From assembly GCA_019925095.2 (NCBI GenBank), contig CM034394.1, positions 5,902,272-5,966,271 of the forward strand: DNA of 64,000 bases, written 5' to 3'. Positions 525-58,721 of this stretch are shown piece by piece (positions within the stretch are counted from its first letter, which is position 1; every line of letters begins with the position of its first letter). A model generated the notes under the pieces. The model searched no databases and was not told the origin of the DNA. It saw only the letters and a program-made list of their open reading frames with translations. The translations under genes and the position numbers were made by a program. The stretch comes from Dendrolimus kikuchii (taxonomy: Eukaryota; Arthropoda; Insecta; Lepidoptera; Lasiocampidae).

Positions 525-693
525 AGTAACACCAGCGTACTTAATCGTGATCCTGTTCTACATAACATGGTTCCCAAAATTGGGCGAAGGACCGTTATGG
601 GAAGACCGTTTACTGTTGGAACAGGAGCGCTGCAAAGCGTCGTGGTGGGCGAACATTCTGTACATCAACAACTATGTGAACACTGACAAAATT
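525..693 (+). CDS. NRF-6-like gene, exon 1 of window
   Basis: Acceptor ttctttacag ends at 524 and donor gtgagt starts at 694. The first base completes a split codon; 56 full codons follow and the exon ends in phase 0. It encodes a membrane helix (YLIVILFYITWF) followed by the conserved WED...C...WWANILYINNY block of the family. Confidence 0.92.
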
Positions 694-2911: not shown

Positions 2912-5900
2912 GTCTATTGAACATAATTTAAGAATTAAATATACATACATACATACATACATAACTTCACGCCAGTTCCCTTGCGGGGTAGGCACGAACA
3001 GCAGAGTGCCATTTAGGCTTATTCTTACACACCTCACTTGCCTCTTTGACATTCATAACTCTACACGATCAAATTTGCACATAATTTAAGAATTAAATAT
3101 ACAAATACATACATATATACACAGTCATATATATACAGTCATATATATATACACATATAAAATAATATATTTCAAAATACATAAGTCATTGTAATAAATG
3201 TATTAGCATGGTATAGTGTTAATCAGACAGCTATTTGTGGACAAATAGTGTTTTCTGAGTAAATTTCTAAATGTTGTTAAGGATTTGGCCTCTTTGACAG
3301 TAAGAGGCAACATATTCCAAAATTTGACAGCCTGTATCATGCTAGGATGAAGTGTGTGCAGGTGTTATAAGTTACGATACATATCAGAGTGCAAATTGTG
3401 GCCAGTGGATATGGGAAGGACTTTAAAACGTTCCTTAATGTACTGGGGACTATTAGGAGTAAATATTATGTATGTTAATAATATAATAATATGTTGAATA
3501 CAGTCTCTTATTATTTTATTTCAGTGTATGTTTCAATCCTGGTATTTGTCAGTCGATACGCAGTTGTTCTTTGTCGCGCCGTTCTTCATCTATAGTCTTT
3601 GGAGGTGGAGGAAGTTCGGACCAATTTGTTTATCAGTTACACTCATCATCTCACTTATTATCCCCGCTGTGATAACTTATAAGGAGCACTTGGATCCTAC
3701 TTTGCTGTTCTATGCCAAGTAAGTTCATTTAGAAAATATTCGAAAAAGCTTAAGGTGCTCAACAGGGCTAAGCTGTTCTGCACGCCGGAACATAAGCTTT
3801 TATTATATAAAGTCCAAGTCATCTCTGGGTTGGGGCACCTCAGTACCAGCTGCTCCCAATTGACTCTTTGTAGCGCCGAGCGGTCTGTATTGTTGACGAT
3901 CCCAACGTTACAGACGGCTTAGAACCTTTAAGTCTCAGAAGAGACGTTGGCACTCTACGTCTGTACAATTGGGAGTGTTCTGATGAGATATTTTATTTTG
4001 TGCCTACCTCGCTATTTTACCACCGCACTGCTCGCCGGCGACTGGGAGTTCATCCACATTATCTTGACACCTGGAAGTCATCCACTCTACGTGGCGTTCG
4101 CACCTTTAAGCCCTATGTGAGAGATATTTAAAGTCTCAACGAGGTAGGCAACGCATCGGCTCCCTTAGTGTTGTAGATGTCCTTGGCGACGGTAGCCACT
4201 TGCCACCAAGTGGACCTGTTTGCCAGTTTGCCTACAAGTAAACATAAAAAATGTCATTTCTTTAAATTGCCTGAAATAAGCAAACAGGTTGATGTTCCGC
4301 CTGAAGAATAGTAGTCACCACTCCGCCATCTATGGAGGCTTCCAATACTATAGGCGTTATCAATCTATTGTGTTACTGGCTTCGATTTTTTTTAGGAACG
4401 CGAAGAGCTTTCAGTATAAATTCACAAACAGTTATTTATAGGTATTATTTTTTATTATAAAGATTTGTATGTCTTTAAAGACCACGGGAAAAATTATTTT
4501 TTATTATTATTATTTAATTGTTTTGTTAGGGATTATTATTGTATAATTCCTATATTTTTTTTAAATTCATGTAATAGTTTAAGGTTACCCAAATACTTGG
4601 AGACTTTAGGACATACGAAATATGAGATTTTGAAGTGACCTGAACACCAGTGCTGTGTCGGAACATGTTTCGGCACAGCAAAAGATTGACTGCCAACCTC
4701 ATTTATTAAATTGTGGCATTCATTTTTGTTTTGTACGTATATTATCTTATCAGTTTGTATTGTGTGTGTCGCAATTGGAAATAAATATATTCTGTCTTTC
4801 TTCTTTTGTAGTAAAAATCTACGGTCATTTTTAATCGTTATTTTTCGTGTTGACTGCCATTTTGTGTAGCCGTATAGTTATAATAGACAAAACCAGCCAT
4901 ATAAAACCAGTATATTTAGGAAAAATAACAGTCTGCCAAAATCGTTAGGCAACCATAAGAAAGTTCAATTTTAAATTAAGTCAGCGTAATTTAAGTTTCA
5001 CAGATTTGGTATGTTATTTTAGAGGTTAAATTCAACGACACTTCCAATTTTATAAAAATGTTTGATAAAATATATTTACTACGTTTTGATGGTTTTAGGT
5101 GCGGTAATTTATTTGATTTATATTATTCCGACGTTTCGGCCACTTCAGTAGCTGTGATCACGGAAGACAAAGATGTCAAGTGTCAGTGAATGTGAATGGT
5201 CTGTTAGATTAGGCTCCCATTGAATAAATAATGACCATAAACATAATTAAAACTAAATAATTAAAATGAACAGTTGGCGATAGGCTAAATAATACTTTAA
5301 CAATACTCATTGTCACTTGACATCTTTGTCGTCTGTGATCACGATTACTATAAAGTGGCCGAAACGTCGGAATAATAAAAATCAAATAATTTACCGCGCT
5401 TAAAACCGTTAAGAGGTAGTTTTATTATGTATACTAGTCGCGAAAACTTTAGAAAATAAAAATATTAGTTACTTTTTTATATTTTCACATGCGACTATTT
5501 TCGTGACATTTTTTTTTCAATATAATTTAATTTTCGTATAATTGTAAATAATTGTTTGAGCCAATTTTTATTTTTATTATATAAATATTTTTTTAGTGGA
5601 AACTTGATTGATATATGTATTCATTTTGTGTTTTATATTTAAGAATATCAATTATTGTATGTTTCCCAAACAAATTAAATAAATAAATATGTAATTTTTG
5701 TGTTTTAGAGAATTCACCGATATTGTATCGAACTTTTATTTCAACGACGCTTATATTAAAACCCATATGAAGATGACAACTTACTGCATGGGATTGTTAA
5801 TTGGATATATTCTTCATAGGATACAATCAAAGAAGTAAGTAACATTAATAAATATAATAATTAATAAAGTCTTGGCATTTTTAGGGGCCCATGCAGTGAG

Positions 5901-8900
5901 TGGCGAGTCACCGCCTGCCCATTTTTTCCATGTACCTTGAATACTGCGACGGGCAGACGCCATAGTCGCCATAGTTCCCGATCTGTAGCTCCATTAATTG
6001 ATCATCCCAATAGACCGGTACCTTTTGTTCTCATTTTCTACAATACTCCTACACTTACCGGGACTTGTCCATGGGTGGATTTTTATATGTTTTAAACGGG
6101 GATAATCGCCGGTCAGTGTGACTCCACATCTATATATATATATATATAAAAGAAAGTCGTGTTAGTTACACTATTTATAACTCAAGAACAGCTATACCGA
6201 TTTGGCCGAAAATTGGTGAGGAAATAGCTTAGAACCAGGAGACGGACATAGGATACTTTTCATCCCGTTGGAACAGGTAGGTGACGCTGAGATCGGGTTC
6301 TAGAATCCTCCTAATCAACTGGACCGATTTTGGTGATTTTGTTTTTGTGTGTTTGAGTGGGTCCCCGGATGGTTTAAATCCACAATTGGAACCGGTAGAT
6401 GGCGCTGGAATCGGGTTCTAGATTTTTATTTTTTCAGAGCAGGACAACGTCTGCCGGGGCTGCTAGTTTAGAATAAATTTGACAAGCGGCCTCTACGTGT
6501 TGGCCTTCCCATGGCCCCACGCAAGCTCTTCAAAAGTCCGGACCATTTTTATGGCCTGTGATCTACAGAGATATACATATAATAAAGTCTTATTAATTTT
6601 CAACCAGTTTGTATATTTAATAAACATTTAAAATTAGCTGATAACTTCAGAAAGAGTCAAATTTCTACTAGTAATATAATTTATAAAGTTATAACACCAT
6701 ATGGATAGGATATGAGAAAAGCACCTTTAAAGACACTTTTTTTATATTTTACAAAAAGTAAATTTGCAGTCAATGTATGCTAAAACATGTCGCAATTATT
6801 ATCATCATTTCCGAAGCTAATAATAGAATTATTTGGCTTGAAAAAATCGGCTAATTAATACAATATTTTAATTAACCGTATATTTTTTGTAAGAAAAGCT
6901 TATCAACCGGCTTCATTTACGTAAACTTCGGGTTATTATTTTGGGGAAATTACTTCGTTATCGATAGGTATATATAATAAAAAGTATCGTATATTTATGC
7001 CAGTTATCTAAAATTCAGATAGGTATACAAAATTTCATTATAATCAATTCATTTCTAAGCTGAAAAGAAGGAACCAACAATTACATAGGCATACTACGAT
7101 ATACCCGCGCCTTCATCTATGTCGGCATTAGGTAATTTTTATGCACGCGAACTACTACTACAAACCGCTACCGGGAAAATTCTTGGGGGATTCCCGAGAC
7201 AAAATTTTTATTACATAAAATTTGCTATCGATAAATGAAAAATTCGCATTGGAATTCGATTTTTTTTTCAATGTGGCCGATTTACATCATTTCCAGAAAA
7301 ATTCTAGGAAGAAGAAGAAGATTTTAATTGTAAGAATTTGCTGTCGATCAGAGATAACCGTATCGACTTCGGCCCAGTACTTTTTACGTGAATCCCGAAC
7401 AAACAGGCAAGAAGTCTAAAAATAATTACATCGTGTTCTCCATCTATATATAGTCTATTCCAGTTGTTTTTTTTAATAACTTTAATGTACAGACACGGCA
7501 TGTTTCGAATTTTATAATATTATATATAGATAGATAGACAAGTTAAAGTAAATAAGACAATTTTCACACTTACCCTGAATTGATTTAAATTTAAGTTTTA
7601 ACTAATGTAATTATTTCAGTTACCAAATCTCAGGTCTTATTAAAACCTTCGCCTGGATCATAAGCATTATCCTGGGCACTGTCACCACATTCTCAGTGAC
7701 ACTGTTCTACCAGGAGTGGTACCAGTACAACAGTATCGAAGCGGCTGCTTACATTTCTCTTCATAAGTTAGCGTGGGGCATTGCTAATGGATGGCTGATC
7801 ATTGCTTGTGCGACTGGAAACGGAGGTAAATTATTATATTTACTTAGTGGTGTATCGTGCTTCTTTATTCAATGAGATAATATAATATATATGTTACGGG
7901 CAATTTGATTAATTGGGCAGTATTAATATGGACTGATCATTATGAATAATGACCACGAGCGTTGGTCAATTTGATAAATTTATTAATTTGGCCGGCCTAT
8001 ATTAATAAAGCACAACCGATCATCCATTAAAAAAATCATGGTTTGAGATAACTTTAATTTGTCACTTGGACTGGGCAGTATGTACTTGTCTACTTCTAGC
8101 TGGACAATATTAATGATAAATTCAGTTACCTGTCCATAAGAATTATGTAAGTTTAACTCATTTAAGGGTGGGCACAGTTATATGGCACTTTTATTTATTA
8201 TGAACAGATTCAATTTTTTTAAAATATAGGTTAAAGAGTGGTTCATTGTTATTTTTTATAACCACCCAAAGTTCACTGCATATCTCAAATGACAAATAAA
8301 AGTGCTGTATAACTATACTTTAACCTCATTTCATAACAAAAAAATACAGTTCACCGATGTTTTATTATACATATTTTTTTTCTTACTATCCGTGATCGCT
8401 AGGATGTTTTTATATCCTCCGCCGTGTGGCAGGGCAGAGATCTTTGTTTTATTAATTGCCCAAGATAAGGTACTCATTATTCATACTGACCAGGAAAAGT
8501 GATCAATCATGCAGTTTTATATTGCGCACTTTTCACGGGCAATAATTGTATACGAGTACAGACCGGTCACTATGAATAGTGACCGAATTTATCAAGTTGC
8601 CCGTAATATATACATAGATAATACTTTACTGTTCATTAAAATAACAGACATTATATATCTACTACTTATATATGTAACTATTATTATACGCAAGTAATAT
8701 TTTTAGGCAATACTGTAGGCGGCCTTATTGCGATCTCCTTTAAACGACCTAACTTATAGGATATTTTTAGGCAATGTGGCGATGTAGGTGGTGCATAAAC
8801 TTAGATGAAAAATGGTAGTTTTAGAGAAATCTTAATTGGTTCGATTTTTAAAGCATAATATTGTTACGAGTGCGGGACTCGAATTAAAATGCCATTGGAA

Positions 8901-11900
8901 TTACTATAGAATAGATATAGAACTATATATACAAACACTTATAGCACAAGTACAAATATAACTGGACGCAACCAGTACAAACTGCACAATTCAATAACAC
9001 GCGCAAAGCCCGTCACTATATAGCTTATCAAATGTACGTCTTGCTCGTATCGTCATCCTCGCTTGACTGCGGTTCTCGCTACATTGCCTCCCCTCTCCAT
9101 CCTGCCGTCGTTTTATACTTCACAAATATAAGTGTGCCCGCCAGTATCGTCGACTTAATTTCCTAGAAATACGTAATCCGCACGCCTGCTTAATTATTCC
9201 TGCTAACGGCCATAAACTAGTACAATATACAATAGACTGTTTTTCTAAGTAAACAAAAGGAGTCCAAATACGGGAAGGTAATAAACTGTGCTTTATGTCA
9301 GGCAGGTGTGAATTCACTGTTTGTCGACATATAACAATATTTTGTAAGATTCGTGTGTATTTTTTCCATCATGATCATGAATTTTGTCTCTTCACGTAAA
9401 TAGTGTCTTATTAGTAACTAAAGCTTCTGATTAATCTAACCACCTCAGTCATATTAGTTATACGAGGTATATGGTAAAAAAAGTTATAAAAATTGTTCTA
9501 ATTGCATGCGGAATGCGTTTCTGAAAAACAATTTTAACTCTTTAATGAGCCTGTTAACCTCGTATAACTATTATAAATAAGTTTGTATTTAAGTAAATTG
9601 TAAAAAAATATTGTTTTCTTGCAGTAAAGTATCAAAATCTTAAATCGGCTCTTTGAAAAACTATATCTGTTTTTTTGTTAAAAGAAGTTATTGAAATAGC
9701 TCTGTTTTGTTTTTATCTAACTGAAATCTTATTAAATTTTCATATCTTCTAGGAATTTTCGGCAAGCTGTGAAATCCTATTAAGTTTTCATATCTTCTAG
9801 GAATTCTCGGGAAGCTGTGAAATCTTATTAAATTTTCACATCTTCTAGGAATTCTCGGCAAGCTGTGAAATCTTATTAAATTTTCATATCTTCTAGGAAT
9901 TTTCGGCAAGCTGTGAAATCCTATTAAGTTTTCATATCTTCTAGGAATTCTCGGGAAGCTGTGAAATCTTATTAAATTTTCACATCTTCTAGGAATTCTC
10001 GGCAAGCTGTGAAATCTTATTAAATTTTCATATCTTCTAGGAATTTTCGGCAAGCTGTGAAATCCTATTAAGTTTTCATATCTTCTAGGAATTCTCGGGA
10101 AGCTGTGAAATCTTATTAAATTTTCACATCTTCTAGGAATTCTCGGCAAGCTGTGAATTCTTATTAAATTTTCATATCTTCTAGGAATTTTCGCCAAGCT
10201 GTGAAATCCTATTAAGTTTTCATATCTTCTACGAATTCTCGGGAAGCTGTGAAATCTAATTAAATTTTCTCATCTTCTAGGAATTCTCGGCAAGCTGTGA
10301 AATCTTATTAAATTTTCATATCTTCTAGGAATTTTCGGCAAGCTGTGAAATCCTATTAAGTTTTCATATCTTCTAGGAATTCTCGGGAAGCTGTGAAATC
10401 TTATTAAATTTTCACATCTTCTAGGAATTCTCGGCAAGCTGTGAAATCTTATTAAATTTTCATATCTTCTAGGAATTCTTGGCAAGCTGTTAACATGGAG
10501 GTTCTTGGCACCGATATCGAGGCTAACGTTTTGTGCTTACTTAGTAAACGGGATAGTCGAGTTGTACTACGTCGGTCAACTGAGGCACCCGCTTCATATC
10601 AACTTCTTTACTGTAGTAAGTATAACTTTCTCAAGTGTAACTAATTTAATTAACCGCCCTACTCAGAGTTCAATTATTGCCAATTATCGTTAAAAATGTG
10701 ATTGGATTGCTCATTTCACTAGATCGGTCGTAAATAGAAGATTTATTTACGGTTATTTCAATTATAGACATATATTTAGATATAATTATGTTCCTACCTC
10801 GGATAACGGATCAGTATGGCGATACAGCGACTTCGATGACCGAGGCTCATCTTTTTTAATTTTTTTATTATTATTATTAACATCTCTCCGAAATCGAGTT
10901 CCGTACCTTTTTTTACTACTTAATTTCTATGAAAAATTTTAGAGTCCATTCACGCTTATTGTTTATTTTTTTTTAGTCTGTGACATTAATTTAGTGATTT
11001 ATATGTTATGGTGTACCTTAAGATTAACTTATTATATTAATTTATCCTATTTTTAATACTAAACTTATACTAATGTAGAGTGTATCTGTTACATGCTGGT
11101 GTTGTGAGGAGTTTTTTATTTAATTTATTCTACTTTTACTTTTAAGGGATTATAGGTACAATGCAATATAAATTAGGTTTCTATCACTGTACTAGTTTAT
11201 AGTTATTATAATATATTGTATTAGTAAACAGAATTTTAAAATTGCAAAAAATCAACTATTGAATCTAAGAAACATGTTTTAAACATTGAATAGCAAGAGG
11301 ATTGACACAATTATGGTATCATAATAACTTAAGTGTGATAATGTTTCTAGTCTTTGAAGAACATTTCCTGTGATAATTTTGTATTAAATAATATACATTT
11401 TAAAGTTTGTTTGTTAGTTATAATATATGTAAACAGATAGATAACTCTTTCTTGTACACCAAAGCTTAGACAAACAAAAGTGATAAAATATTGTACAACG
11501 AGCGGCCTTAATGCTAAAATACGACCTCTTCCAAACAACCCCTTTTTTATACAGGGGAAATCTATTTGAGGACCATAGGCGACGCAAGGGGGAAAGGTTG
11601 CGACCCATGTGTGGGATTCGCCAGGTTGGGGTGTCACTAGCACCCCACGTGTTAAGTGCTATTGGCATGCAGCAGTTAGGGATACCCACTAAAACCTTGG
11701 TCCAATCCTCAAGCGTCTTTTGTGCGGGCTGTGGGTTTGCTCAAGCATTCGCCTTTAGTTCAGATGGATTTCAGATAACCCCTGCCAGAGATTGATAGAA
11801 CAGTTACCGTCGCTTATAGATGTTTGAACACCGGGGGCGAAGAAGAGGCGTTACCAGCTTTTAGAATGACATAATGGGAAGACTTAGACGGAACAGACAA

Positions 11901-14900
11901 GAGGAACAGAATAGAGGAGATGGGATTGGAGGTAGAATTATCCGTGCAGGAACGGAGAAAGAATACAAATTCCTGTGGCCAGGCGGCCTGTCGTAGGAGG
12001 AGAAAAAAAATCCACAACCAGGTGGTAGGGCATTTTTAATCTGGATAGTTACCAACCCTGATCTGAAGTATACCGCCATAACAACCTTGAGTTGTGTTTC
12101 CCATCTACGAGTCCGTCAGCACATTGGTAGCGCCTTTAGTGTTGCAAATGTTTATAGACGACGGCAACCACTTTCCATCACAGTTGGACCGTTAACCTGT
12201 CTGCTGTACTCCAGCAACAAAAAAAAAGAATATTGTGATTTAATTCAAAATGAAGATGAAATGATATTGCATTTTAAAATACAGACATTGGATTTGAACA
12301 TAAGATCATTAAATTTCAATACAAATAAAACAAACTGCATTGCAGTGCAAAACAGTAATTCTCAAAGACATTAAGTTAGCCGCAGCGACTGCACAGACAA
12401 AAGTGACGATTTATGACGCTGATGTAATTCCAAACCCTGCAGTTACACTGAAAAATATTGCAGCTGCGTCTTAGTAAAAACATTCCTTATAACGAGATTA
12501 TATGATAGTGTTATGAGATTAAATGATAACTTTTAGTTCCATATTAACATATAAACGCAAAAATAATTATGTTTATATGATATTAATTTGTCAGGTGATA
12601 GGGCATTTGCCCGACTGGACGACTACTATCCCAGGTCTAGAGTATGTCGCCATAACAGCCTTAATTTGTGTTCCGGCATTAGTAACCAGGTTCCAGTTTC
12701 CTTTAAGAGAGCAGCAGCGCATTTGTAGCACCTTTGGTGATGCAAATGTCCATAGGCGATGGTAAGTGGTTCCCATCAAATGGGCCGTCTGCCTGTCTGC
12801 TAAACTCGGGCAATAAAAATTAAAATATATATAAATAAAATTAGCAAGAGAAGGATTTTTTTTATTGCAGGAGATCAGCAGACAGGCAGACGGCCCACTT
12901 GATGGAAAGCGGTTACCATCACCTATGGACATTTGCAACACCAAAGTTGCTACGAATGCGCTGCTGCTCTCTTAAGGGAGACTGGAACCTGGACACTAAT
13001 GCCGGAACACAATACAAGGTTGTTATGGCGACATTCTTTAGACTAGGGGTGGTAGTCATCCAGTCGGGCAAATGCCCTACCAGCTGGCAAAAGTGGAATA
13101 TAGTGAGGAAAGGCTTCGGTTGTTTTGTCTCGGAAAACGAGTGACAAATTTTTTTATGGGTAACGCCTCAGACGAACTAATTTATAGACGGAGCCTGCGT
13201 GAACCAAATCATCAAATTAGGTGAAGCATATTTTAAAAACTTCTGTGCGTACACTTCTGTAGTGTTACACGTTGTTTGCGTCTGTGGGGTCAATAGTAAT
13301 ACACACTGGAAACTATTCCACTTTTATCCGTACTGACACGATTATTTAGTAATAAGTTCTCGCAAGGTACTACAGCGCGGTCGACTTCTTTTTAGCTGGC
13401 TTCACTCTCAGAGCTCGGGGCTCTATCTACCCATTTCAGTTATCTGAGTAATGCATAATATCGCAAGGTAGAAAAATCGATATTTAGACTTTTGATAAGA
13501 GAAAATAAAAAATATAGGTATATCAATTGTATAGGGTAAATACCTAGCAGTGGCGCGAGGTAAAAATTCTGATTACATCGCTGTCGAAAACACTGTTAAC
13601 TCGCGATGTATTACGTTATTAAAAATTTTAATTTTAATTTTGCAATTATACCGCATATTTTGAAACAAAAGCCGGTGCCGATCGGGTTATGAGTTGTTAT
13701 GTCATCCAACACGTGTGGAAAGCCGTCCATCGTAAGAGATAGGACTACAGTAATAATATTTCCACGAATAAAAAACGTAAGTGCCAATAAATTCATGGTG
13801 CTTTCGACTTTTTGGTCGCTAGTTAATTTATAGAGACACTAATAAATAATGTGTTGGAACACAACGCGTAAAAGCTAATAATTATTTGGTCGCTAGTTTA
13901 TTGAAGATAGGCTATGGGGAAATGAAGTTGTATGACCTCCACGTCACTGACACCTAGTATGATATAAAGAGGTACTTCCAATGGTGTTGCTAAATTTTGA
14001 CCATTTACAGCGGCCTTCTCCTTGAACCTACAGATGTCAAACTTGACAGGAATACTTATTTGATATAAAAATTTGAATAAAGAAAGCCGCACAATTCGAG
14101 AAAAATGTTAAAATATATCATTTTATTTTTTTAGATGGCCACTGCGATCTCACACATCACGCTGACATTCTTCCTTGCCATAATACTTTGCATCACTTTC
14201 GAATCGCCGTTACATGGAATCGAAAAGATCCTCCTCAGGAAGTTTGGTGAGTATCATAATTAGCTCATGAGTTGAGGCACTTAAACAAATTATAATCAAA
14301 CGAAGTATTCAACCAAAAATGTGATTTAATCCTTGTGTGTTTTTTTTTATTTAAAAGCAGAAATAAGAATGCAATGGAGTATTTATGGACTTACAAGTAT
14401 AATGTTTTTGGTATTTCTGTGGTCATTTTTATAAAAAAAATATAAATAAAATAAAAAGTCTTTTATATCTTCTTTAAATACATAATATGTCATTACATTC
14501 CTTTCAATCAGTTTTTTGTAATTTTTATGAATATTTTAATTTCCAACAAATTTATTCGTTAAATTATAAACAGCAGATATTGATTAACAGTAAGATGTTG
14601 ATGGTAGCACTAAATCTGTATTCTGTAATCTTGGTATTCGAATACGTCACCTTTTTTTGAGTGGCAATACTGTCTACGCATGTCACTGAATTATATAATC
14701 TACCTCCACTGTTTCCAACTACAACTTAAAAATTGTGGTGGGTAGCAATGGTGGCATAAAAGGATGCTGCGGCCGCGTTCCGCTAATATAACATCTAACA
14801 CGTACCTACATAACACTAACAAGCAAATTTTGATGTGAAAACACAATAACTATGAGTATTGACGTTAAATATGTTCAAAAGTAAAATAAAAGCTGGAGAA

Positions 14901-15418
14901 TCAATCCAAAGTATTTTTATGGCAAATATTCTATTTGCCTTACATGTGTTTCTGTTGATAATCTTAATAATTTAGTGAAATGTCATTTTTCGCGCTTAGA
15001 TACAAGAACTAAAACTTTATTTTTAACGGCTTTAAGCGTGGAATTCTATTTGTTTTTATTTCGACGTTTCGGCCATATCTCAGTAGACGTGATGACGGTA
15101 GACAAAGCTATCAAAACCGATAAAAATTAGTATTAATTACCTATAAGTACTCGTGAAAACTTGAGAAAATATTACTACAAGAATTTCAATTTAACGTCAA
15201 TGAAAGACAAATAATTTAGTTGAGGCTTATGTCACTTCGCTTCGGCTTTTGTCTGTAGCCTATTATTCTAACGCTCGTTTATTTATGAACAATATTCAAG
15301 CAATTTAATAAATAAGTAATTACAACTTCATTTTTCAGCTGGGTCACCAAGAGACACTACGAAAAGGGAATTAAACGAATCATCAAGAAATACTAGTCAG
15401 TCAAAAATAGAATCATAG
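525..15418 (+). CDS. NRF-6-like acyltransferase-3 membrane protein, 3' part of gene, 7 exons
   Basis: Coding exons are 525-693, 3525-3718, 5709-5834, 7620-7825, 10473-10615, 14135-14246 and 15339-15418. Every junction is GT-AG and the phases match throughout, giving 342 codons and a TAG stop at 15416-15418. The protein begins inside a codon shared with an unseen upstream exon. Recognisable blocks are a PAYL...WFPKLGEGP segment, CKASWWANILYINNY, CMFQSWYLSVDTQLFF and PISRLTFCAYLVNG. These are typical of the acyltransferase-3 half of insect and nematode 'nose resistant to fluoxetine' proteins, which are polytopic membrane proteins of poorly known substrate; some members act in lipid or drug uptake in gut and epidermis. 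Several 18-22 residue hydrophobic stretches fit membrane helices. The tail after about residue 316 is short and polar. The N-terminal NRF domain would lie off the left edge. Introns are heavily loaded with transposons and one acceptor is tandemly repeated. Confidence 0.93.
888..1117 (+). repeat. S1 SINE-like copy, old and diverged
   Basis: It aligns by eye to the S1 family from the 'cgtaagaggcgac' block to the 3' 'gcaataa' end. Many substitutions and small indels mark it as an old copy. It lies in the intron after 693. Confidence 0.55.
1585..1700 (+). repeat. Cryptic repeat of 'gtagactg'-like words
   Basis: The words tgtagactg, tgtagaccg, tggactac, tgtagactgcc and tgtagactcg recur irregularly over about 110 bp. 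It looks like a decayed short tandem repeat inside the intron. No coding sense was seen. Confidence 0.4.
1779..1972 (-). repeat. S1 SINE-like copy, 5'-truncated
   Basis: The minus-strand copy has its A-rich tail (T-run on +) at 1779-1796 and is cut after the 'atactttaga' block. The tail is kept and the head is lost, as expected for incomplete reverse transcription. Confidence 0.75.
2201..2504 (+). repeat. S1 SINE-like retroposon, full-length copy
   Basis: This is the reference for the commonest repeat here, about 300 bp, starting tatccgtgcaggaacggag and ending gtgcaataaaaaaaaa. It is found at least 17 times on both strands. Truncated copies lose the start but keep the A-rich end, so the family behaves as a retroposon. 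No clear tRNA A/B boxes were found, so the promoter type is open. Its 3' third resembles the 3'UTR of the LINE at 3745-4250. Apparent ORFs in it are by-products. Confidence 0.8.
2842..2908 (+). repeat. (GA)n microsatellite
   Basis: This is a near-perfect GA dinucleotide run with two GTGAGT-type interruptions near 2868. The minus-strand Ser/Leu-rich ORF over it is an artefact of the repeat. Confidence 0.95.
2945..3078 (-). mobile_element. L2 LINE tail, 5'-truncated, with 24-bp TSD
   Basis: The minus strand carries the end of an RTE-like LINE ORF (the block usually reading MNVKEASEVCKN...YPAR) followed by an (ATGT)n tail. It is flanked by direct repeats of 24 bp beginning acataatttaagaa at 2921-2944 and 3079-3102, an unusually long and exact target-site duplication. 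Confidence 0.8.
3130..3460 (-). mobile_element. LINE reverse-transcriptase C-terminal fragment plus 3'UTR
   Basis: Minus-strand conceptual translation contains FWNMLPLTVKEAKSLTTFRN, matching the 'lWN.LP...r...s...Fk..l' end of CR1/Jockey RT proteins. It is 5'-truncated and lies in the intron ending at 3524. Confidence 0.6.
3525..3718 (+). CDS. NRF-6-like gene, exon 2 of window
   Basis: Acceptor tttatttcag ends at 3524; donor gtaagt starts at 3719. It starts in phase 0 with CMFQSWYLSVDTQLFF, the most conserved motif of this family, then two hydrophobic segments. It ends with two bases of a Lys codon. Confidence 0.93.
3745..4250 (+). mobile_element. L6 LINE 3' end (R1/Jockey-like RT C-terminus) with S1-like 3'UTR
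   Basis: Frame-broken translation shows VLNRAKLFCTPEHKLLLYKVQ then pieces of the AERSV...TIPTLQT and YFTTALLAGDW...HPLY blocks, typical of lepidopteran LINE RT C-termini. Directly after it, 4140-4250 resembles the 3' third of S1 (tgtccttggcgacggtagcc versus tgtccataggcgatggtaac). This is a pseudogene fragment. Confidence 0.6.
5085..5425. mobile_element. Penelope-like fold-back element (terminal repeats only)
   Basis: A left arm (gacgtttcggccacttcagt) and a right arm (aagtggccgaaacgtcgg) form an inverted pair with 'aaccgtta..gtagttttatta' ends. It has no coding part. It matches the inverted terminal repeats of the Penelope copy at 33586-34846. Confidence 0.7.
5709..5834 (+). CDS. NRF-6-like gene, exon 3 of window
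   Basis: Acceptor tgttttag ends at 5708; donor gtaagt starts at 5835. The exon encodes the loop FTDIVSNFYFNDAYIKTHMK and a helix beginning CMGLLIGYILH, matching the family's extracellular loop and 'Y.MGLL.GY.L' helix. It was too short and closed by stops to show as a long ORF; splice phase and homology define it. Confidence 0.88.
5876..6570 (+). repeat. R6 repeat copy, split by a Helitron
   Basis: It shares blocks with 21263-21790: ggggcccatgcagtgagtgg, gcgacgggcagacgccatag, and the end gcctctacgtgttggccttc. The pieces are 5876-6128 and 6467-6570, separated by a Helitron-like insert. Class of R6 unknown. Confidence 0.7.
6129..6466 (+). mobile_element. Non-autonomous Helitron (LEP1-like), 338 bp
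   Basis: It starts TCTATATATA and ends GCTGCTAG, inserted between A and T without target duplication, all Helitron hallmarks. Joining the flanks gives 'ccaca' + 'tttagaataaattt', which matches the uninterrupted R6 copy (ccacatttacattaaat, break point 21688/21689). Related copies are at 20653 and 51048. Confidence 0.8.
7122..7530 (+). repeat. R7 repeat copy, unknown class
   Basis: It pairs with 20215-20652. Shared words include gggattcccg, gattcccgaacaaacaggca-type strings, tcgtgtt(c/t)tcc, tattccagttgtttttttta and acagacacggcat. It is about 410 bp, AT-rich, with no ORF of note. Confidence 0.65.
7620..7825 (+). CDS. NRF-6-like gene, exon 4 of window
   Basis: Acceptor ttatttcag ends at 7619; donor gtaaat starts at 7826. 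Encodes two hydrophobic helices around an LFYQEWYQYN loop, ending HKLAWGIANGWLIIACATGNG, the family's 'R..WA...AW.i..C..G.GG' block. It ends with one base of a Gly codon (G|GA). Confidence 0.92.
7894..8606. mobile_element. Non-autonomous DNA transposon with long TIRs
   Basis: Left end ttacgggcaatttgattaat and right end (reverse complement) ttacgggcaacttgataaat are inverted repeats; flanks are TATATA-rich so the TSD is ambiguous. A second inverted pair lies inside at about 8161-8205 and 8285-8325 (gcacttttattt / aaataaaagtgc), which may be a nested small element. No transposase is encoded. Confidence 0.7.
8862..9336 (-). mobile_element. Solo LTR, Ty3/Gypsy-type, 475 bp (family SL1)
   Basis: On the minus strand it ends ...actcgtaaca; on + it runs tgttacgag...ataaca, with TG/CA ends. 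Flanked by the 4-bp direct repeat atat (8858-8861 and 9337-9340). It shares ends and the 'acggcattttaattcgagtc' block with 27830-28324 and 40399-40882. No internal region or second LTR is present. Confidence 0.75.
9719..10486 (+). repeat. 48-bp tandem array duplicating a 3' splice junction, 16 units
   Basis: Each unit has 30 bp of intron end (gaaatcttattaaattttcatatcttctag with variants) and 18 bp matching the start of exon 5 (gaattctcggcaagctgt). AG dinucleotides fall every 48 bp at 9752, 9800 and so on to 10472. The unit at 10232 has AC instead of AG. The first unit lacks two bases. Units cycle as A (attttcggc), B (cctattaag...gggaag) and C (tcacatc...ctcggc), giving a 144-bp higher-order period. 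From any upstream acceptor the frame meets TGA after six residues; only the last unit continues as ctgttaacatgg into the exon. Minus-strand openness follows from 48 being a multiple of three. Confidence 0.97.
10473..10615 (+). CDS. NRF-6-like gene, exon 5 of window, with duplicated acceptor
   Basis: The acceptor atcttctag ends at 10472 and is the last unit of a 48-bp tandem array. The exon completes the split Gly codon and reads ILGKLLTWRFLAPISRLTFCAYLVNG, the conserved 'f.PLSRLTYcaYL.H' motif. Donor gtaagt starts at 10616, phase 0. The first 18 exon bases (10473-10490) are also part of the array unit, so the start was fixed by reading frame: the upstream copies all run into TGA. Confidence 0.92.
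11805..11936 (-). repeat. S2 repeat fragment related to S1
   Basis: It shares 'tagatgtttgaacaccgggggcgaag' type sequence with 52142-52290 (tagacgtttacaacactagg) and the following agaatgac/aggatgaga and ggatgggac blocks. The family appears to be a distant S1 relative. Confidence 0.45.
11938..12228 (+). repeat. S1 SINE-like copy, full length, diverged
   Basis: It starts ttatccgtgcaggaacg and ends ccagcaacaaaaaaaa. Several substitutions in the middle place it among the older copies. Confidence 0.8.
12593..12820 (+). repeat. S1 copy, 5'-truncated
   Basis: It begins at the 'aggtgatagggcatttgcc' block and keeps the 3' gcaataaaaatt tail. Confidence 0.8.
12856..13090 (-). repeat. S1 copy, 5'-truncated, tail-to-tail with its neighbour
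   Basis: The T-run and gcaggagatcagcagac at the left mark the 3' end; it stops at ccctaccagctgg. With 12593-12820 it forms a tail-to-tail inverted pair about 35 bp apart. Confidence 0.8.
14135..14246 (+). CDS. NRF-6-like gene, exon 6 of window
   Basis: Acceptor atttttttag ends at 14134; donor gtgagt starts at 14247. It encodes the last membrane helix (AISHITLTFFLAIILCITFESP) and the conserved E.P....EK...R end of the acyltransferase domain. Ends in phase 1. Confidence 0.9.
15013..15115 (-). mobile_element. Penelope-like terminal-repeat fragment
   Basis: It contains ttaacggctttaagcgtgg and tcgacgtttcggccatatct followed by gacggtagacaaag, matching one arm of the Penelope copies. It sits in the last intron. 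Confidence 0.55.
15339..15418 (+). CDS. NRF-6-like gene, terminal coding exon
   Basis: Acceptor catttttcag ends at 15338. It completes a split codon and adds about 25 polar residues rich in Ser, Lys and Arg before a TAG stop at 15416-15418. Such a short polar cytoplasmic tail is normal for the family. Lower certainty than the other exons because the tail is not conserved. Confidence 0.75.
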
Positions 15419-23631: not shown

Positions 23632-23707
23632 GGCCGATTTCTCAATTACCAGATAAAAGTTTTTCATAGAGTAAAACACAACATGGGAAAATTAAAAATG
23701 ACAGTTG
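23632..23707 (+). mobile_element. Half of a GGGCCGATT-type MITE, cut by S1
   Basis: It starts gggccgatttctcaattacc and agataaaagttttt, matching the left end of 42580-42752. The S1 copy at 23708 interrupts it and no right half is recognised beyond. Confidence 0.5.
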
Positions 23708-24033
23708 CATTTTTTTTTATTTTTTTTTTATTGCAGGAGATCAGCAGACAGGCAGACGACTCACTTGATGGAAAGCGGTTACCATCGCCTATGGACATTT
23801 GCAACATCAAAATTGCTACAAATGCGCTGCTGCTCTCTTAAGGGAAACTGGAAGCTGGTCACTAATGCCGGAACACAACTCTAGGTTGTTATGGCGACAT
23901 ACTTTAGAATAGGGGTGGTAGCCATCCAGTCGGGCAAATGCCCTACCACCTGGCTGTGGGTTATTTAGTTGCCTCTTACGACAGACCGCCCGGTCGCAGG
24001 AAAATGTATTCTTTCTCCGTTCCTGCACGGATA
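23708..24033 (-). repeat. S1 copy, full length
   Basis: Tail T-runs at 23708-23730; head cctgcacggata at the right. Confidence 0.85.
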
Positions 24034-28329: not shown

Positions 28330-29031
28330 TTAAAAGAATCGAATCCATACAACGTACATTTTTAGACTTTAAATGCAAGGTTAACGATAATCACTACGAA
28401 GCTAGATGTCTCAGACATCATATTTTGCCATGGCACAAAAGCAGACAAATAGCAGATATAGTGATGCTAAGTAAAATTGCAGTTAGAATAGACCCGCCTT
28501 ATTTATTATCTAAAATGTGTTTGAAAGTGCCAACAAGACTATTCCGGAATCCAATACAATTGTTTGTTCCTCGGATATTTAGTGTTTTTTTTTTATTGCA
28601 GGAGATCAGCAGACAGGCAGACGGCCCACTTGATGGAAAGCGGTTACCATCGCCTATGGACATTTGCAACACCAAAGTTGCTACAAATGCGCTGCTTTTC
28701 TCTTAAGGGAGACTGGAACCTGGTAACTAATGCCGGAACACAACTCAAGGTTGTTATGGCAATATACTTTAGACCAGGGGTGGTAGCCATCCAGTCGGGC
28801 AAATGCCCTACCACCTGGCTGTGGGTTGTTGAGTCGCCTCTTACGACAGGCCGCCCGGCCGCAGGAAATTGTATTCTTTCTCCGTTCCTGCACGGATAAT
28901 TATAGGGCAATTTCTTATTTTAATCGTGAGTCAATTAACTATAATCTTTTAACTGTTACACATGATTTAGATTTATTTATTACTAATCCACATGTAAAGA
29001 CGGTCCTGGTAAAGCACTGGTTTGAATATTA
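28330..29031 (+). mobile_element. LINE RT C-terminal fragment, split by S1
   Basis: Left part reads YEARCLRHHILPWHKSRQIA, then LSKMCLKVPTRLFR; right part (28899-29031) reads YNLLTVTHDLDLFITNP. These match the last ~120 residues of CR1/R4-like RT proteins. The insertion at 28585-28898 divides it. Confidence 0.6.
28585..28898 (-). repeat. S1 copy, full length, inside a LINE fragment
   Basis: T-run tail at 28585-28594 and head cctgcacggata at 28887-28898. One of the best-preserved copies, close to 23708-24033 and 61000-61318. Confidence 0.88.
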
Positions 29032-40882: not shown

Positions 40883-41314
40883 GTATGAGAGAATTGTATA
40901 ACTTTAAGTTTTTTAACGTTTCATTAGTATTGAAACTGTAATTAACTCCGATGAATAAATTGATTAGCTTATTTAAAAATAGACCAGTGAACTAATTATT
41001 CTAATAATTGTTTAAATTCGCTTGTGAATCCTTTGTACTTTACGATTCGGTGTCATAATACCCCGTGTGGAACGTAATATTTTGAGGATGATGGTGTCGG
41101 ACTTCCCGTGACAATAGTCGCCATTTTGGCGTAAAGCCACGTGAAGTTTGTACACAGAATTGGATTTTAAATTCGATTTTCGTGTGAAGATTTATACGTG
41201 GTAGAGTTTTGTTGGAATTAATCATCTTAATTACAGCTCTTAGGGCATCTATGTTTGAATATCAGAATTTATAAAGTCTAAATATTCATTAACGAATATT
41301 TGATTGAGATCATC

Positions 41315-41615
41315 ATACGTGCAGGAATGGAGAAAGAATACAATTTCCTGCGACCGACTGGTCAGTCGTAAGAGGCGACAAAACAACCCGCAGCCAGGTG
41401 GCAGGATATTTGCCCGCCTGACGCCTGGTCTAGAGTATGTCACCATAACAACCTTGAGTTGTGTTCTGGAATTAGTGGCCAGGTTCCAGTCTCCTTTTAG
41501 ATAGCAGCAACGCATTTGTAGCATCTTTGGTGTTGCAAGTGTCCATAGGCGATGGTAACCGTTTTCCATTAGGTGGGCTGTTTGCCTGTCTGCTGAAGTC
41601 CTACAATAAAAAAAG
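41315..41615 (+). repeat. S1 copy, full length with internal deletion
   Basis: It starts atacgtgcaggaatggag and ends ctacaataaaaaaag. About 15 bp of the 'gactggatggctaccacccc' block is missing near 41420. Confidence 0.8.
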
Positions 41616-41619
41616 ACAT

Positions 41620-42575
41620 AAATTAGCAACTACCTACATCTCGTTAAAAATTAATAATACCTACTTTACACATTGTTTGCGATATACTATTATAATGTTG
41701 TTTTAGCAACAACACATAATAACATTAAGAGTTTATGTGAAACGTGCTTTCAAATAGCACTGTAAAGGATCGAGTACATGTAGAAAATTCATGAGTGGAA
41801 CCCACGTTGCGTACGCCCACGCAGTTTAAGATACCCGTGAGTGTTGTTTATTTATTCACAAGTATGTTTCTATAGAAAACTGGGAGCTGGAATGTACTAC
41901 GTTTTGGTTTATATTAGAACTATCTAAGGGTTAATAACGTGGGTGGTTCTGTATAATAAGTTACAATAAATACTAAGGCCGGGTACTCACCTGCGAACTG
42001 TAAGCGTAACCGGCGCACATTAGTGTACCCAAAATTCATAATGTGTACGTAGTTCGCTAGCCTTTTTTTTACGAAGGGAAACCCGAGCCCAGTTTTGTAA
42101 GTTTGTGAAAACTATCTATATTCGTTTGACTAAGGCCCGGCTCCTATATCTTCACAACCGTTCGTTTACCTTACTATCGGTTAAAATATGATATGTTTAT
42201 GGTAATTATTTAATAAAAATCAAGTCAAATACTGCGCTTAAAACCGTTAAAACGTAGTTTTATTATGTGTACAAATCATTTCGTATTTCAGAATAGAAAA
42301 TACCTTCGCGGAAATATTTTTCTGAATAAATAGTTATTTATGATACTGTAGGGTAAGTTGGTTTTTACAAACAAGTAGACGAATGTTAGCCCTCGACTTC
42401 GTCTCGAGCTTGCCATAGTCAAGAGTCATCCTAAAAATTCCAGCGAAACACAATTAATTGTTCTTCCTGAAGAAGTTTAGACCATTCCTCGATACTTATT
42501 ATTGACTAATTGACGGTTCCTATATCTTACTAACCGTTTATAATTTTACATAAGCTCTACACAAGTATTGTTAAA
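41620..42575. other. Intergenic stretch with a Penelope end fragment
   Basis: 42226-42268 (gcgcttaaaaccgttaaaac then tagttttattatgtg) is the terminal end of a Penelope-like repeat. The remainder is unrecognised. Confidence 0.5.
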
Positions 42576-55604: not shown

Positions 55605-56177
55605 TTCGTTATTACTTGCTCGAAGAAATTTAATGACTGCACCATCCCCTACTCTTGCAATATTGCAACTTCAGTTAACCTGTGAGCAAGTTGCGTTGTT
55701 TCACAACTATTAATTGTGAACAGCTGTAACTTTGTCCCGTTTAGTATTGTAACAGTTACTTGATAAATTATCTGTCTAACTTTAAGTAGGGGTAATTAAT
55801 TGCCAGGAATCGGCAACTTGTACCGGGTAGGTAATAATTACGACTTAAATTTGCGCAAGACCTTTTGAAAAGAGCTGCAATTATAAGGTGTATATTTTAT
55901 CGAGTCTGTTTGTAGTGAAAATCGCATCTTATGCCAACATTAATTGGTGCAATTCTGTCTTTTACTTTGGATGAATCGACCAAAGTGAACCATATAATGA
56001 TAAACTTGAATCATTCTATGACATTAAATACCGTTCTTCCAGTTTTGTGTCTTTCAACTAAATTGATTCAACTCAAACTGATAGTTTACTTTATTTTTCC
56101 TTCCACCCATTTTAATATTATATAAAATTATTAGAGCTAGGCATGTCTGCTGAATAGTTTCTTGCAGCTCTTCTTCT

Positions 56178-58721
56178 GATGCTGGGGAGCATTTACTCAT
56201 TGAAGTAGAACTTGCTCATGCCAAAATTCTACTTGGAGTCTTTTATATTTCTTCACTTCGTATCAATTACTTTTCTTCCTTTGAAACACTTTTAGAAAAT
56301 ATCTCAACTTCATTCGCGCATACCATCATCATGGGCGATTTTAATACCTGCCTTCTGAAACGAGACCATCGGTCATCTTCCTTAGAAACTTTAGTTCGAT
56401 CTTTAAATCTCAATATTCTTCCGCTGAGTGCTACGCATAGCTTTCCTAACTCGACCCCTTCTCTTCTTGACTTGATGATGGTCTCGTCACCTTCTCACGT
56501 CTCCAAACACGGCCAGTGTTCGGCGGACGCTTTTTCATATCATGATTTGATCTACCTTTCTTACAATGTACGCCCGCCGAAAGTGAAACCCAAAATTATC
56601 CTGCAGCGAAATTTTGGTGATATGAATTTGGACGCACTTCTCAAGGATGCTCGGGAATTCGACTGGTCTGAGGTGGCTAAGGCCGCTACCGTTGATGAAA
56701 AGTTGCATGTGTTTAATACTGCTTTACTGAGGCTTTATGACTCACATGCACCTTTACGCCGTATAAAAATCAAACATCTGCCAGCGCCGTGGCTGACCGA
56801 TGACATCAAATCACTGATGCACAAAAAGTCCAAGGCTAAAACCAAATTCAAAATGAAACCTACCGAAGTCAACCGAATGGCGTTCGTAACTATTCGTAAT
56901 CGCTGCAATAGAGTGTGTAGGGACGCTCAACGCCGCTACATTCACGAGTCAGTTGAAAGTGAAAGCCCAGCTAAAGTCTGGAAATTTCTACGATCCCTGG
57001 GAGTTGGCAAGCAAACAAATAGTGTAATTCCCAAAGAACTCAACATTGACGATTTAAATCGACATTTCTCAGCTACTTCTGACTTTGACGTTGTAACTAA
57101 GTCTAATACTTTAAACACTCTTTCCGCCTTGCCAACACCCAATTATCCTCCATTCTTATTAAGTCAATTTACTGATAGTGATGTTAAGAGCGCTGTGAAA
57201 TCAATTACATCGAACGCTGTCGGTAGCGATGGTATTAGTCGCAACATGATTCTGCCCATACCGGATGTCATCAATCCTATCCTCACCCATATATTCAATG
57301 CCTCTGTAGTTTCTAGTACCTTTCCAGTCACCTGGAAGGAAGCCCAGATTATTCCTCTTCCTAAAAAACCTAACCCTGTTTCTTTCTATCAATTCCGTCC
57401 TATATCTATTCTGCCATTCCTTTCTAAAGTCCTGGAACGCCTAGTCCACCAACAGTTAAGTGTTTTCCTTAATCGACATTCTCTCCTTAATCCCTATCAA
57501 TCTGGTTTCCGTCCTGGCCACAGCACAACTACTGCCCTCGTGAAAATCACCGATGACATCCGTTATGGTATGGATAATGGTTTATTGACTGTGCTATCGC
57601 TACTGGACTTCAGCAGTGCTTTCAACAATGTTGACTTTGAAATATTACTTGGTATTCTAAGCTCTCTTAACATATCTCCTACAGTAATCGACTGGTTTCA
57701 CAGTTACCTGTTTGGCCGCCGGCAGCGGGTTCGCGTCGAGGATGATTATTCGTCATGGTGTGAACTCTCTGCTGGTGTTCCTCAGGGCGGCGTGCTTTCT
57801 CCCTTATTGTTCGCTGTTTTTATTAAGTCCATCTCTAACCAACTCACTTCAACCTATCACCTCTATGCAGACGATTTACAAATTTATACACAATCACCTA
57901 TCGCCACCTTAGACAAAGCAGTTTCTATCATAAACGTAGATTTTGAATGCATTCTGCAGTGGGGCAAGTCTTTTGGGCTTCATGTGAACCCTGAAAAAAC
58001 TCAAGTCATCGTCATAGGTAGCCCACGGATGCTTAATAAGGTCGACTGGAGTACCATACCTAGTGTGATGTTTGACGGAACAATCATTCCTTTTACTGAT
58101 AAGGTAAAAAACCTTGGCGTTATATTTGACAGCGAGCTGTCTTGGCGACCTCATATCACCGAATTAAGCCGGCGGCTTTATGTCTCATCCAAATCCCTTA
58201 GAAGGTTGAGGAATTTCTTACCCACTTCCACCAAAATTAAGCTAGCAGAATCCTTATTACTTCCTCTCCTTGATTATGCTGACGCCAGCTATCTAAATTT
58301 AACCCAAGAACAACTTAATAAACTTGAGCGCCTCTAAAATTTTTGTATAAGGTTCATATTTGGACTACGCAAGTATGACCATGTCTCTGAATTCCGAAAA
58401 AATCTCAAGTGGTTGCCAATTCGATTTCGCCGGAGTACTTACATCCTTGCTTTACTCTATAGTATTTTATTTGTCCCTAATACTCCTGATTACCTTAAAC
58501 AAAATTTTGAATTTCTTTCGTGCTCTCATAATTTACGCCCTTCTACTAAACTTAAATTGAACACTCCTGCGCATAACTCAACTTTTTATAACAATTCTTT
58601 TACTGTTAAGGCTATACAGCTCTGGAACGCGCTTCCTGTTACAATCAGACAAGCAAAATCGGTAGCGATATTTAAAACTATGATCAAAAAATACTACCTG
58701 TCGTTGGAATATAATATTTAA
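56178..58721 (+). pseudogene. LINE endonuclease end plus reverse transcriptase ORF, one nonsense codon
   Basis: The reading frame is open from the 5' junction (56178) through an ATG at 56331 to 58337. An in-frame TAA at 58335-58337 interrupts it; the same frame continues to TAA at 58719-58721. Endonuclease remnant: AKILLGVFYISSLRINYFSS and MGDFNTCLL (GDFN motif). RT blocks: IIPLPKKPNPVSFYQFRPIS, YQSGFRPGHSTTTALVK, SAGVPQGGVLSPLLFAVF and the catalytic LYADDLQIY (YADD near residue 512 from the ATG). The C-terminus has AIQLWNALPVTIRQAKSVAI. Full catalytic residues of RT are present; the C-terminal 128 codons lie beyond the stop. Confidence 0.92.

What the first reader, a model, noticed from the sequence alone, without database searches (positions are those of the whole stretch)
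9719..10486. A 3' splice junction amplified into a 16-unit tandem array directly before its own exon
Seen: the 48-bp unit is exactly 30 bp of intron end plus the first 18 bp of NRF-6-like exon 5. AG acceptors occur every 48 bp from 9752 to 10472; 14 of 15 upstream ones are intact. From any of them the frame inherited from exon 4 reads G-I-L(or F)-G-K(or similar)-L and then TGA. Only the last unit yields full-length protein. Inference: the cell must pick the last of 15 near-identical acceptors, or else makes truncated, decay-prone transcripts. The array could set protein dose through copy number. I know of no described gene with this layout.
Basis: partly seen in the sequence, partly recalled or inferred. 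Interest (0 to 1): 0.86.

Follow-up and report, generated by a model that had tools for sequence, protein, structure and literature searches.

The report
Splice acceptor repeated sixteen times
In what looks like an intact insect gene, a 48-letter piece spanning the end of one intron and the start of the next exon sits sixteen times head to tail, so the cell must splice to the last copy to make the full protein; it is most likely an accidental repeat expansion, but its effect on splicing can be tested directly.

Summary
Sixteen 48-bp units (9722-10489) each carry intron end, TTCTAG (TTCTAC in one) and exon start. 14 of 15 upstream AGs are intact, and all 15 upstream joins stop after I(L/F)(G/A)KL. 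The host is a lepidopteran NRF-6-like acyltransferase gene, open wherever it could be read; 42 of 42 orthologue records examined run through the junction without an insert. One match was found in the 705-Mb own genome. The array is five 144-bp blocks of three unit types plus a final unit; four blocks are identical, so intact AGs reflect recent copying, not proven selection.

Best reading: a junction-spanning minisatellite. The last acceptor is favoured by exon definition; upstream ones are decoys giving decay-prone transcripts. A dosage role is possible but unsupported. New point: the best branch-point-like site (CTAAC, 9717-9721) lies just outside the array, 32 nt before the first AG, so two acceptors are privileged, first and last. 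Predicted folding does not consistently mark the last acceptor. The closest published case is the donor-side mirror image, the human 6-16/IFI6 minisatellite. Eight searches aimed at such arrays listed no acceptor-side case. No RNA data or relatives' DNA could be checked.

The parts
525..693 (+). Exon of the host gene (first one inside the window; four more 5' exons lie upstream of the window)
3525..3718 (+). Exon of the host gene
5709..5834 (+). Exon of the host gene
7620..7825 (+).
   Evidence: AG/GT borders and open frame; matches orthologues
7826..10472 (+). Intron, 2647 nt if the last acceptor is used; holds the array at its 3' end
   Evidence: donor GTAAAT at 7826, last AG at 10471-10472
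9717..9721 (+). CTAAC, the best branch-point-like site (putative branch A at 9720), 32 nt before the first AG and just outside the array
   Evidence: score 6.0, against best scores of 3.5-5.5 at the gene's 5 other acceptors tested and at most 5.0 in units 2-16; the weights are my own, the consensus recalled
9722..10489 (+). Array of 16 x 48-bp units (31 bp intron end + 17 bp exon start); five 144-bp ABC blocks plus a final unit
10154..10297 (+). Block 4, the only diverged block: five private changes, one of which removes the AG of unit 11 (10232)
10442..10489 (+). Last unit; its acceptor (AG at 10471-10472) is the only one that opens the rest of the gene
10473..10615 (+). Exon after the array ('exon e', 143 nt), followed by donor GTAAGT
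   Evidence: matches orthologues
14135..14246 (+). Next exon of the host gene ('exon f')
15339..15418 (+). Terminal coding exon with TAG stop ('exon g')
   Evidence: (weak match, E 0.27)

Best explanation
A 48-bp segment straddling the native 3' splice junction of an NRF-6-like gene was tandemly duplicated, diverged into three unit types, and expanded in 144-bp steps to 16 units: a minisatellite that happens to be made of splice acceptors (the units are shown; the order of events is inferred). Nearly every unit keeps a pyrimidine tract, an AG and an internal branch-point-like site, so each is a plausible acceptor. The last one is used for functional mRNA, because it alone leaves the conserved frame open; it is probably favoured by exon definition, being closest to the GTAAGT donor at 10616 across a 143-nt exon with long introns on both sides (inferred). 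Leakage to upstream acceptors yields truncated products of one length and should feed nonsense-mediated decay (inferred). Besides the neighbours of the last unit, the likeliest leak is to the first acceptor, since the best branch-point-like sequence lies 32 nt before it (inferred). The array is most likely tolerated, not a selected regulator.
For: Array and frame. Host gene open where read: 342 aa to the stop over 7 exons; four upstream exons, from orthologue residue 166. 42 of 42 examined orthologue records run through the junction without an insert. One match in the genome. Recent homogenisation, 4 of 5 blocks identical. Minisatellites are common here: 4 distinct arrays of period 20 or more with at least 5 copies in 200 kb sampled. 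Splice sites closest across the exon are favoured when flanking introns are long (PMC9225289, abstract and section 9). In weak duplicated 3' splice site substrates, splicing went only to the distal site, though very inefficiently (PMC5389562).
Against: No RNA evidence of any kind. For acceptors, PMC9225289 reports that the upstream preference is reduced under exon definition, not abolished or reversed for long/long introns, and that upstream sites are preferred overall. The strongest branch-point-like site serves the first acceptor, not the last. Double occupancy of two 3' splice sites inhibits splicing (PMC5389562), so 16 sites could be costly, not merely tolerated. Predicted structure covers the pyrimidine tracts of the array, the last unit's included, more than those of most other acceptors of the gene.
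Confidence: 0.66

Rival explanations
1. Splicing rheostat: array length sets the share of productive mRNA, through decoy use plus decay or through several U2AF/U2 complexes bound at once that stall splicing, so copy number tunes protein dose.
For: All 15 upstream units keep the pyrimidine tract and 14 of 15 the AG. Pre-mRNA with two 3' splice sites can bind two U2AF or two U2 snRNPs, and this inhibits splicing (PMC5389562).
Against: No sign of selection: the identity of units is explained by recent block copying. Predicted local accessibility of the last acceptor is unchanged from 4 units on (local folding of at most 250 nt, so long-range effects are not seen).
Confidence: 0.14
2. Damaging allele: most transcripts join to the first or other upstream acceptors, so this is a low-function or null allele in the sequenced individual or lineage.
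For: The best branch-point-like site feeds the first acceptor. Upstream 3' splice sites are preferred overall in PMC9225289 (section 9).
Against: All exons that could be read are open, and upstream borders look canonical by eye, so no decay of the gene is visible; a recent lesion would leave none yet.
Confidence: 0.12
3. Assembly artefact: the copy number or the diverged block is a consensus error and the true allele has fewer units.
For: All five private changes of block 4 are swaps to the complementary base, which is odd. Four identical 144-bp blocks are easy to mis-count.
Against: The locus lies in a 27.5-Mb contig; no N in the 294 kb examined. Three interleaved unit types and a distinct last unit argue for a real array even if its length is uncertain.
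Confidence: 0.06
4. Structural masking: the array RNA folds on itself and hides the decoys, leaving the last acceptor exposed.
For: The array folds better than plain shuffles (z -13.9, 20 shuffles) and than tiled shuffled units (z -2.7, 3 of 200 as good; z -2.4, 6 of 200). In two of four fold settings the last AG is marginally the most open of the AG-bearing units (0.58 against at most 0.54; 0.55 against at most 0.54).
Against: In the other two settings the last AG is among the least open (0.27 and 0.33), and its pyrimidine tract is never the most open. The last two units pair with each other more strongly (z -3.7, 1 of 200) than the first two (z -1.6, 15 of 200).
Confidence: 0.02

Closest known systems
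Human 6-16 / IFI6 (G1P3) minisatellite providing multiple splice donor sites (Turri, Cuin and Porter 1995, Nucleic Acids Res 23:1854)
   Same: A minisatellite at an exon/intron border that hands the spliceosome many copies of one splice site. Only the title was seen, in two reference lists; the paper is not held; the gene name and layout are recalled.
   Different: Donor side, not acceptor side; a shorter unit (recalled as about 12 bp). Here the unit holds an acceptor plus in-frame exon start, and every upstream choice ends at a stop of the same distance.
Duplicated 3' splice site test substrates (Reed and Maniatis 1986; PMC5389562)
   Same: A 3' splice site with a piece of its exon placed upstream of the native one; the spliceosome must choose.
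   Different: Two engineered sites, not sixteen natural ones. Passages and section 15 of PMC5389562 read; Reed and Maniatis seen only as a reference.
[quoted passage not shown]
   Same: Tandem duplication of splice-site sequence; duplication sizes that are multiples of three and premature stops are discussed (passages read).
   Different: That concerns exonic AG/GY sites turning into a new intron; here an existing acceptor is multiplied and the GTs in the units look poor by eye.
TERT intron 6 VNTR6-1 (PMC11830802)
   Same: A tandem repeat inside an intron whose length is reported to go with splicing of its gene (title and start of abstract seen in a listing).
   Different: Not described in that listing as being made of splice sites.

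Membership tests
Minisatellite | Head-to-tail array of units of about 10-100 bp (definition recalled) | tested here: met
   48-bp unit, 16.0 copies; units listed
Minisatellite | Copy number varies between individuals (VNTR) | not testable with these tools
   one assembly only; no relatives held for it
Minisatellite supplying multiple splice sites (IFI6 type) | Each unit contains a copy of the splice site of a real exon border | tested here: met
   15 of 16 units have the AG and all 16 the pyrimidine tract; the last is the conserved exon border
Minisatellite supplying multiple splice sites (IFI6 type) | The repeated site is a donor | tested here: not met
   the repeated site is an acceptor; GTs in the units (CT|GTGAAA in each, AA|GTTTTC in type B) look poor by eye
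Minisatellite supplying multiple splice sites (IFI6 type) | More than one copy is used in mRNA | not testable with these tools
   no RNA reads available
NRF-6-like acyltransferase gene | Acyl_transf_3 domain (PF01757) | tested here: met
   E 6e-12, 45.7 bits, cut-off 31
NRF-6-like acyltransferase gene | N-terminal NRF domain (PF20146) | tested here: inconclusive
   upstream exons match the orthologue from residue 166 and orthologues carry PF20146; the domain was not scanned on this gene itself
Functional copy-number rheostat | Array length changes full-length mRNA or protein | not testable with these tools
   needs minigenes or genotyped individuals

The most novel reading that the evidence does not exclude
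A natural splicing rheostat: an array of complete 3' splice sites, likely hypermutable, each closed by an in-frame stop, in which copy number sets how much full-length protein is made, by decoy splicing with decay and by several U2AF/U2 complexes jamming one intron. A heritable dose dial acting at splice-site choice.
Probability: 0.1. Interest if true: 0.85.

Novelty: new variant of a known kind. Interest (0 to 1): 0.55.

Why it matters
How a cell chooses among near-identical acceptors has been studied with engineered duplicates. This locus offers sixteen natural, evenly spaced ones in one gene, each wrong choice leaving a recognisable junction and a stop. It can separate first-AG, branch-point and exon-proximity rules in one RNA experiment, and show whether a repeat that hits a splice junction is harmless, harmful or a dose control.

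Tried and rejected
Structural masking: strong folding against plain shuffles shrank to z -2.4 / -2.7 when the control kept the tandem tiling; the last acceptor is not consistently more open. A first accessibility script gave impossible negative values through my wrong summing; that part is discarded and replaced; the block comparison stands. One search shows a change between 1 and 2 units (the pyrimidine tract becomes less open) and flat values from 4 units on, but it folds at most 250 nt at a time.

Selection on the AGs: rejected as evidence, because four of five blocks are identical. Microexons inside the array: the GTs in the units look poor, and the resulting 32-nt intron would be too short (by eye; limits recalled). 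Recursive splicing: needs AG|GT; the units have AG|GA.

The array elsewhere: one match in the own genome, no exact match to a 21-base pattern in viral contigs, and the antisense frame of the array found nothing convincing among predicted proteins (one hit at E 0.52, 30% identity, 7994 candidates scored). Rfam: nothing at gathering score in 7000-11500. NCBIfam: nothing for the protein; that library serves bacteria and archaea. Paralogues in the own genome: not completed (13 tries), so the number of gene copies is unknown. Exon borders were wrong by a few bases in some exons and were corrected.

Full report
What is there. Sixteen 48-bp units run from 9722 to 10489 (TRF 9722-10490). The pattern with up to 3 mismatches occurs 16 times in the window, mean 0.00 in 100 shuffles. 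A DNA search of the 705-Mb own genome found one match, the array itself (that search skips very common words and scores only the best candidates). AG is intact in 14 of 15 upstream units.

Frame. Joined to exon 7620-7825, each of the 15 upstream units reads I-(L/F)-(G/A)-K-L and then TGA, the first codon of the next unit. All 15 choices give the same length, 237 instead of 342 residues of the part encoded in the window, with the stop 171 to 843 nt before the end of that exon (unit 11 is formal, since its AG is lost). Only 10472 leaves the frame open.

Host gene. Seven exons in the window give 342 open residues ending in TAG at 15418, with AG before each exon and GT after each but the last. Four more exons upstream of the window bring the match to residue 166 of the 781-residue Helicoverpa orthologue; residues 1-165 were not found in the 30 kb fetched. 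The protein carries Acyl_transf_3 and is 82% identical over 316 residues to its best relatives, P0028 and P0030; many of the relatives are named nose resistant to fluoxetine protein 6 or 6-like by their sources. From 26 proteins of the first search and 120 listed of 237 of the second I examined 42 records at the junction (P0001, P0002, P0027-P0066; by source names 41 lepidopteran and one caddisfly; records, not species, and P0065 looks like a second gene of one species). 38 match a motif with identical spacing of 27 residues, and the other 4 were seen by eye to run through without an insert. Left out of this count: the other insects, the unnamed fragments, and four lepidopteran models that do not cover the place (P0009 skips the region; P0013, P0014 and P0017 end before it). 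Proteins cannot show whether relatives' introns hold an array.

History. Three unit types alternate A-B-C in five 144-bp blocks, then the last unit. Blocks 1, 2, 3 and 5 are identical; block 4 has five private changes, all to the complementary base, one of which destroys the AG of unit 11. So the array expanded recently in 144-bp steps, and the many intact AGs are not evidence of selection. In 20 pieces of 10 kb taken at round positions from 20 contigs of the same genome, TRF finds 4 distinct arrays with period 20 or more and at least 5 copies (7 rows). Scaled up that is on the order of ten thousand per genome, so now and then one should start on a splice junction; the estimate rests on 4 arrays.

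Which acceptor wins. The 15 positions before the AG are 80% pyrimidine in 15 units and 87% in one, against 60-87% at the gene's five other acceptors tested. Best branch-point-like scores in units 2-16 are 4.0 (14 units) and 5.0 (unit 12), within the 3.5-5.5 of the other five (weights are mine, and I scanned 40 nt back in the array and 50 nt elsewhere). The best site of all, CTAAC at 9717-9721 (6.0), lies just outside the repeated unit, 32 nt before the first AG. The ancestral branch point was thus probably left behind and now serves the first, stop-yielding acceptor, while the last must rely on a unit-internal site (inferred). On the other side, the exon after the last acceptor is 143 nt long, has a GTAAGT donor and lies between introns of 2.6 and 3.5 kb, where splice sites closest across the exon are favoured (PMC9225289, abstract and section 9). 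For acceptors that paper reports an overall upstream preference that is significantly reduced, not reversed, when both introns are long. I therefore expect two privileged acceptors, first and last.

Cost or control. With two 3' splice sites on one RNA, two U2AF or two U2 snRNPs can bind at once and splicing is inhibited; [quoted passage not shown]). Sixteen sites might slow this intron. That is the best argument for a dose effect, and it is untested here.

RNA structure. The array with 22 bases of left flank folds at -244 kcal/mol (z -13.9 against 20 plain shuffles). Against controls that keep the tiling it is z -2.7 (3 of 200 as good) and z -2.4 (6 of 200): the unit is somewhat self-complementary. 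The last two units pair with each other (z -3.7, 1 of 200) better than the first two (z -1.6, 15 of 200). Accessibility of the last AG against the 14 other intact ones differs by setting: among the lowest in two, marginally the highest in two, and its pyrimidine tract is never the most open. Array pyrimidine tracts, the last included, are mostly less open than at the gene's other acceptors at the same setting (last unit 0.30 against 0.42-0.78). Shortening the array in silico changes the last acceptor between 1 and 4 units and not beyond (local folds only).

Literature. Of ten searches of the held library, eight aimed at repeats that carry splice sites; two concerned this gene family and splice-site competition. 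Judged by titles and abstract starts, none of the papers listed concerns an array of acceptors; one search listed 25 of 43 and one search listed 20 of 142. The nearest is the donor-side minisatellite of human 6-16/IFI6, which I recalled and confirmed by title in two reference lists. The library lacks most subscription papers, so absence is weak evidence.

Verdict. The likeliest account is a tolerated junction-spanning minisatellite with the last acceptor preferred. The rheostat idea is open but unsupported.

Noticed in passing
10158, 10194, 10232, 10258, 10270: All five private changes of array block 4 are swaps to the complementary base (A>T, G>C, G>C, T>A, A>T), about 0.4% by chance if the three alternatives are equally likely; the other four blocks have none. 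Clustered repair, template switching or a consensus error.
   Followed up: partly
9688-10269, minus strand: Because 48 is a multiple of three, the antisense strand of part of the array is an open frame of 193 residues made of 16-residue repeats; no convincing relative was found, so it looks like a by-product.
   Followed up: yes
56154-58721, plus strand: Two adjacent long frames (727 and 127 aa), separated by one stop, that look by eye like a non-LTR retrotransposon protein with endonuclease and reverse transcriptase parts.
   Followed up: no
about 1744-1911, 12845-13141, 23702-23881, 28525-28896 (plus) and 41249-41629 (minus): Several copies of one dispersed repeat, recognisable by translated strings close to SADRQTAHLMESGYHRLWTFATPK; probably a transposable element family.
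   Followed up: no
P0009 (Operophtera brumata protein): The annotated protein skips the region around this junction, unlike the full-length lepidopteran orthologues examined; an annotation gap or an awkward intron there in that species.
   Followed up: no
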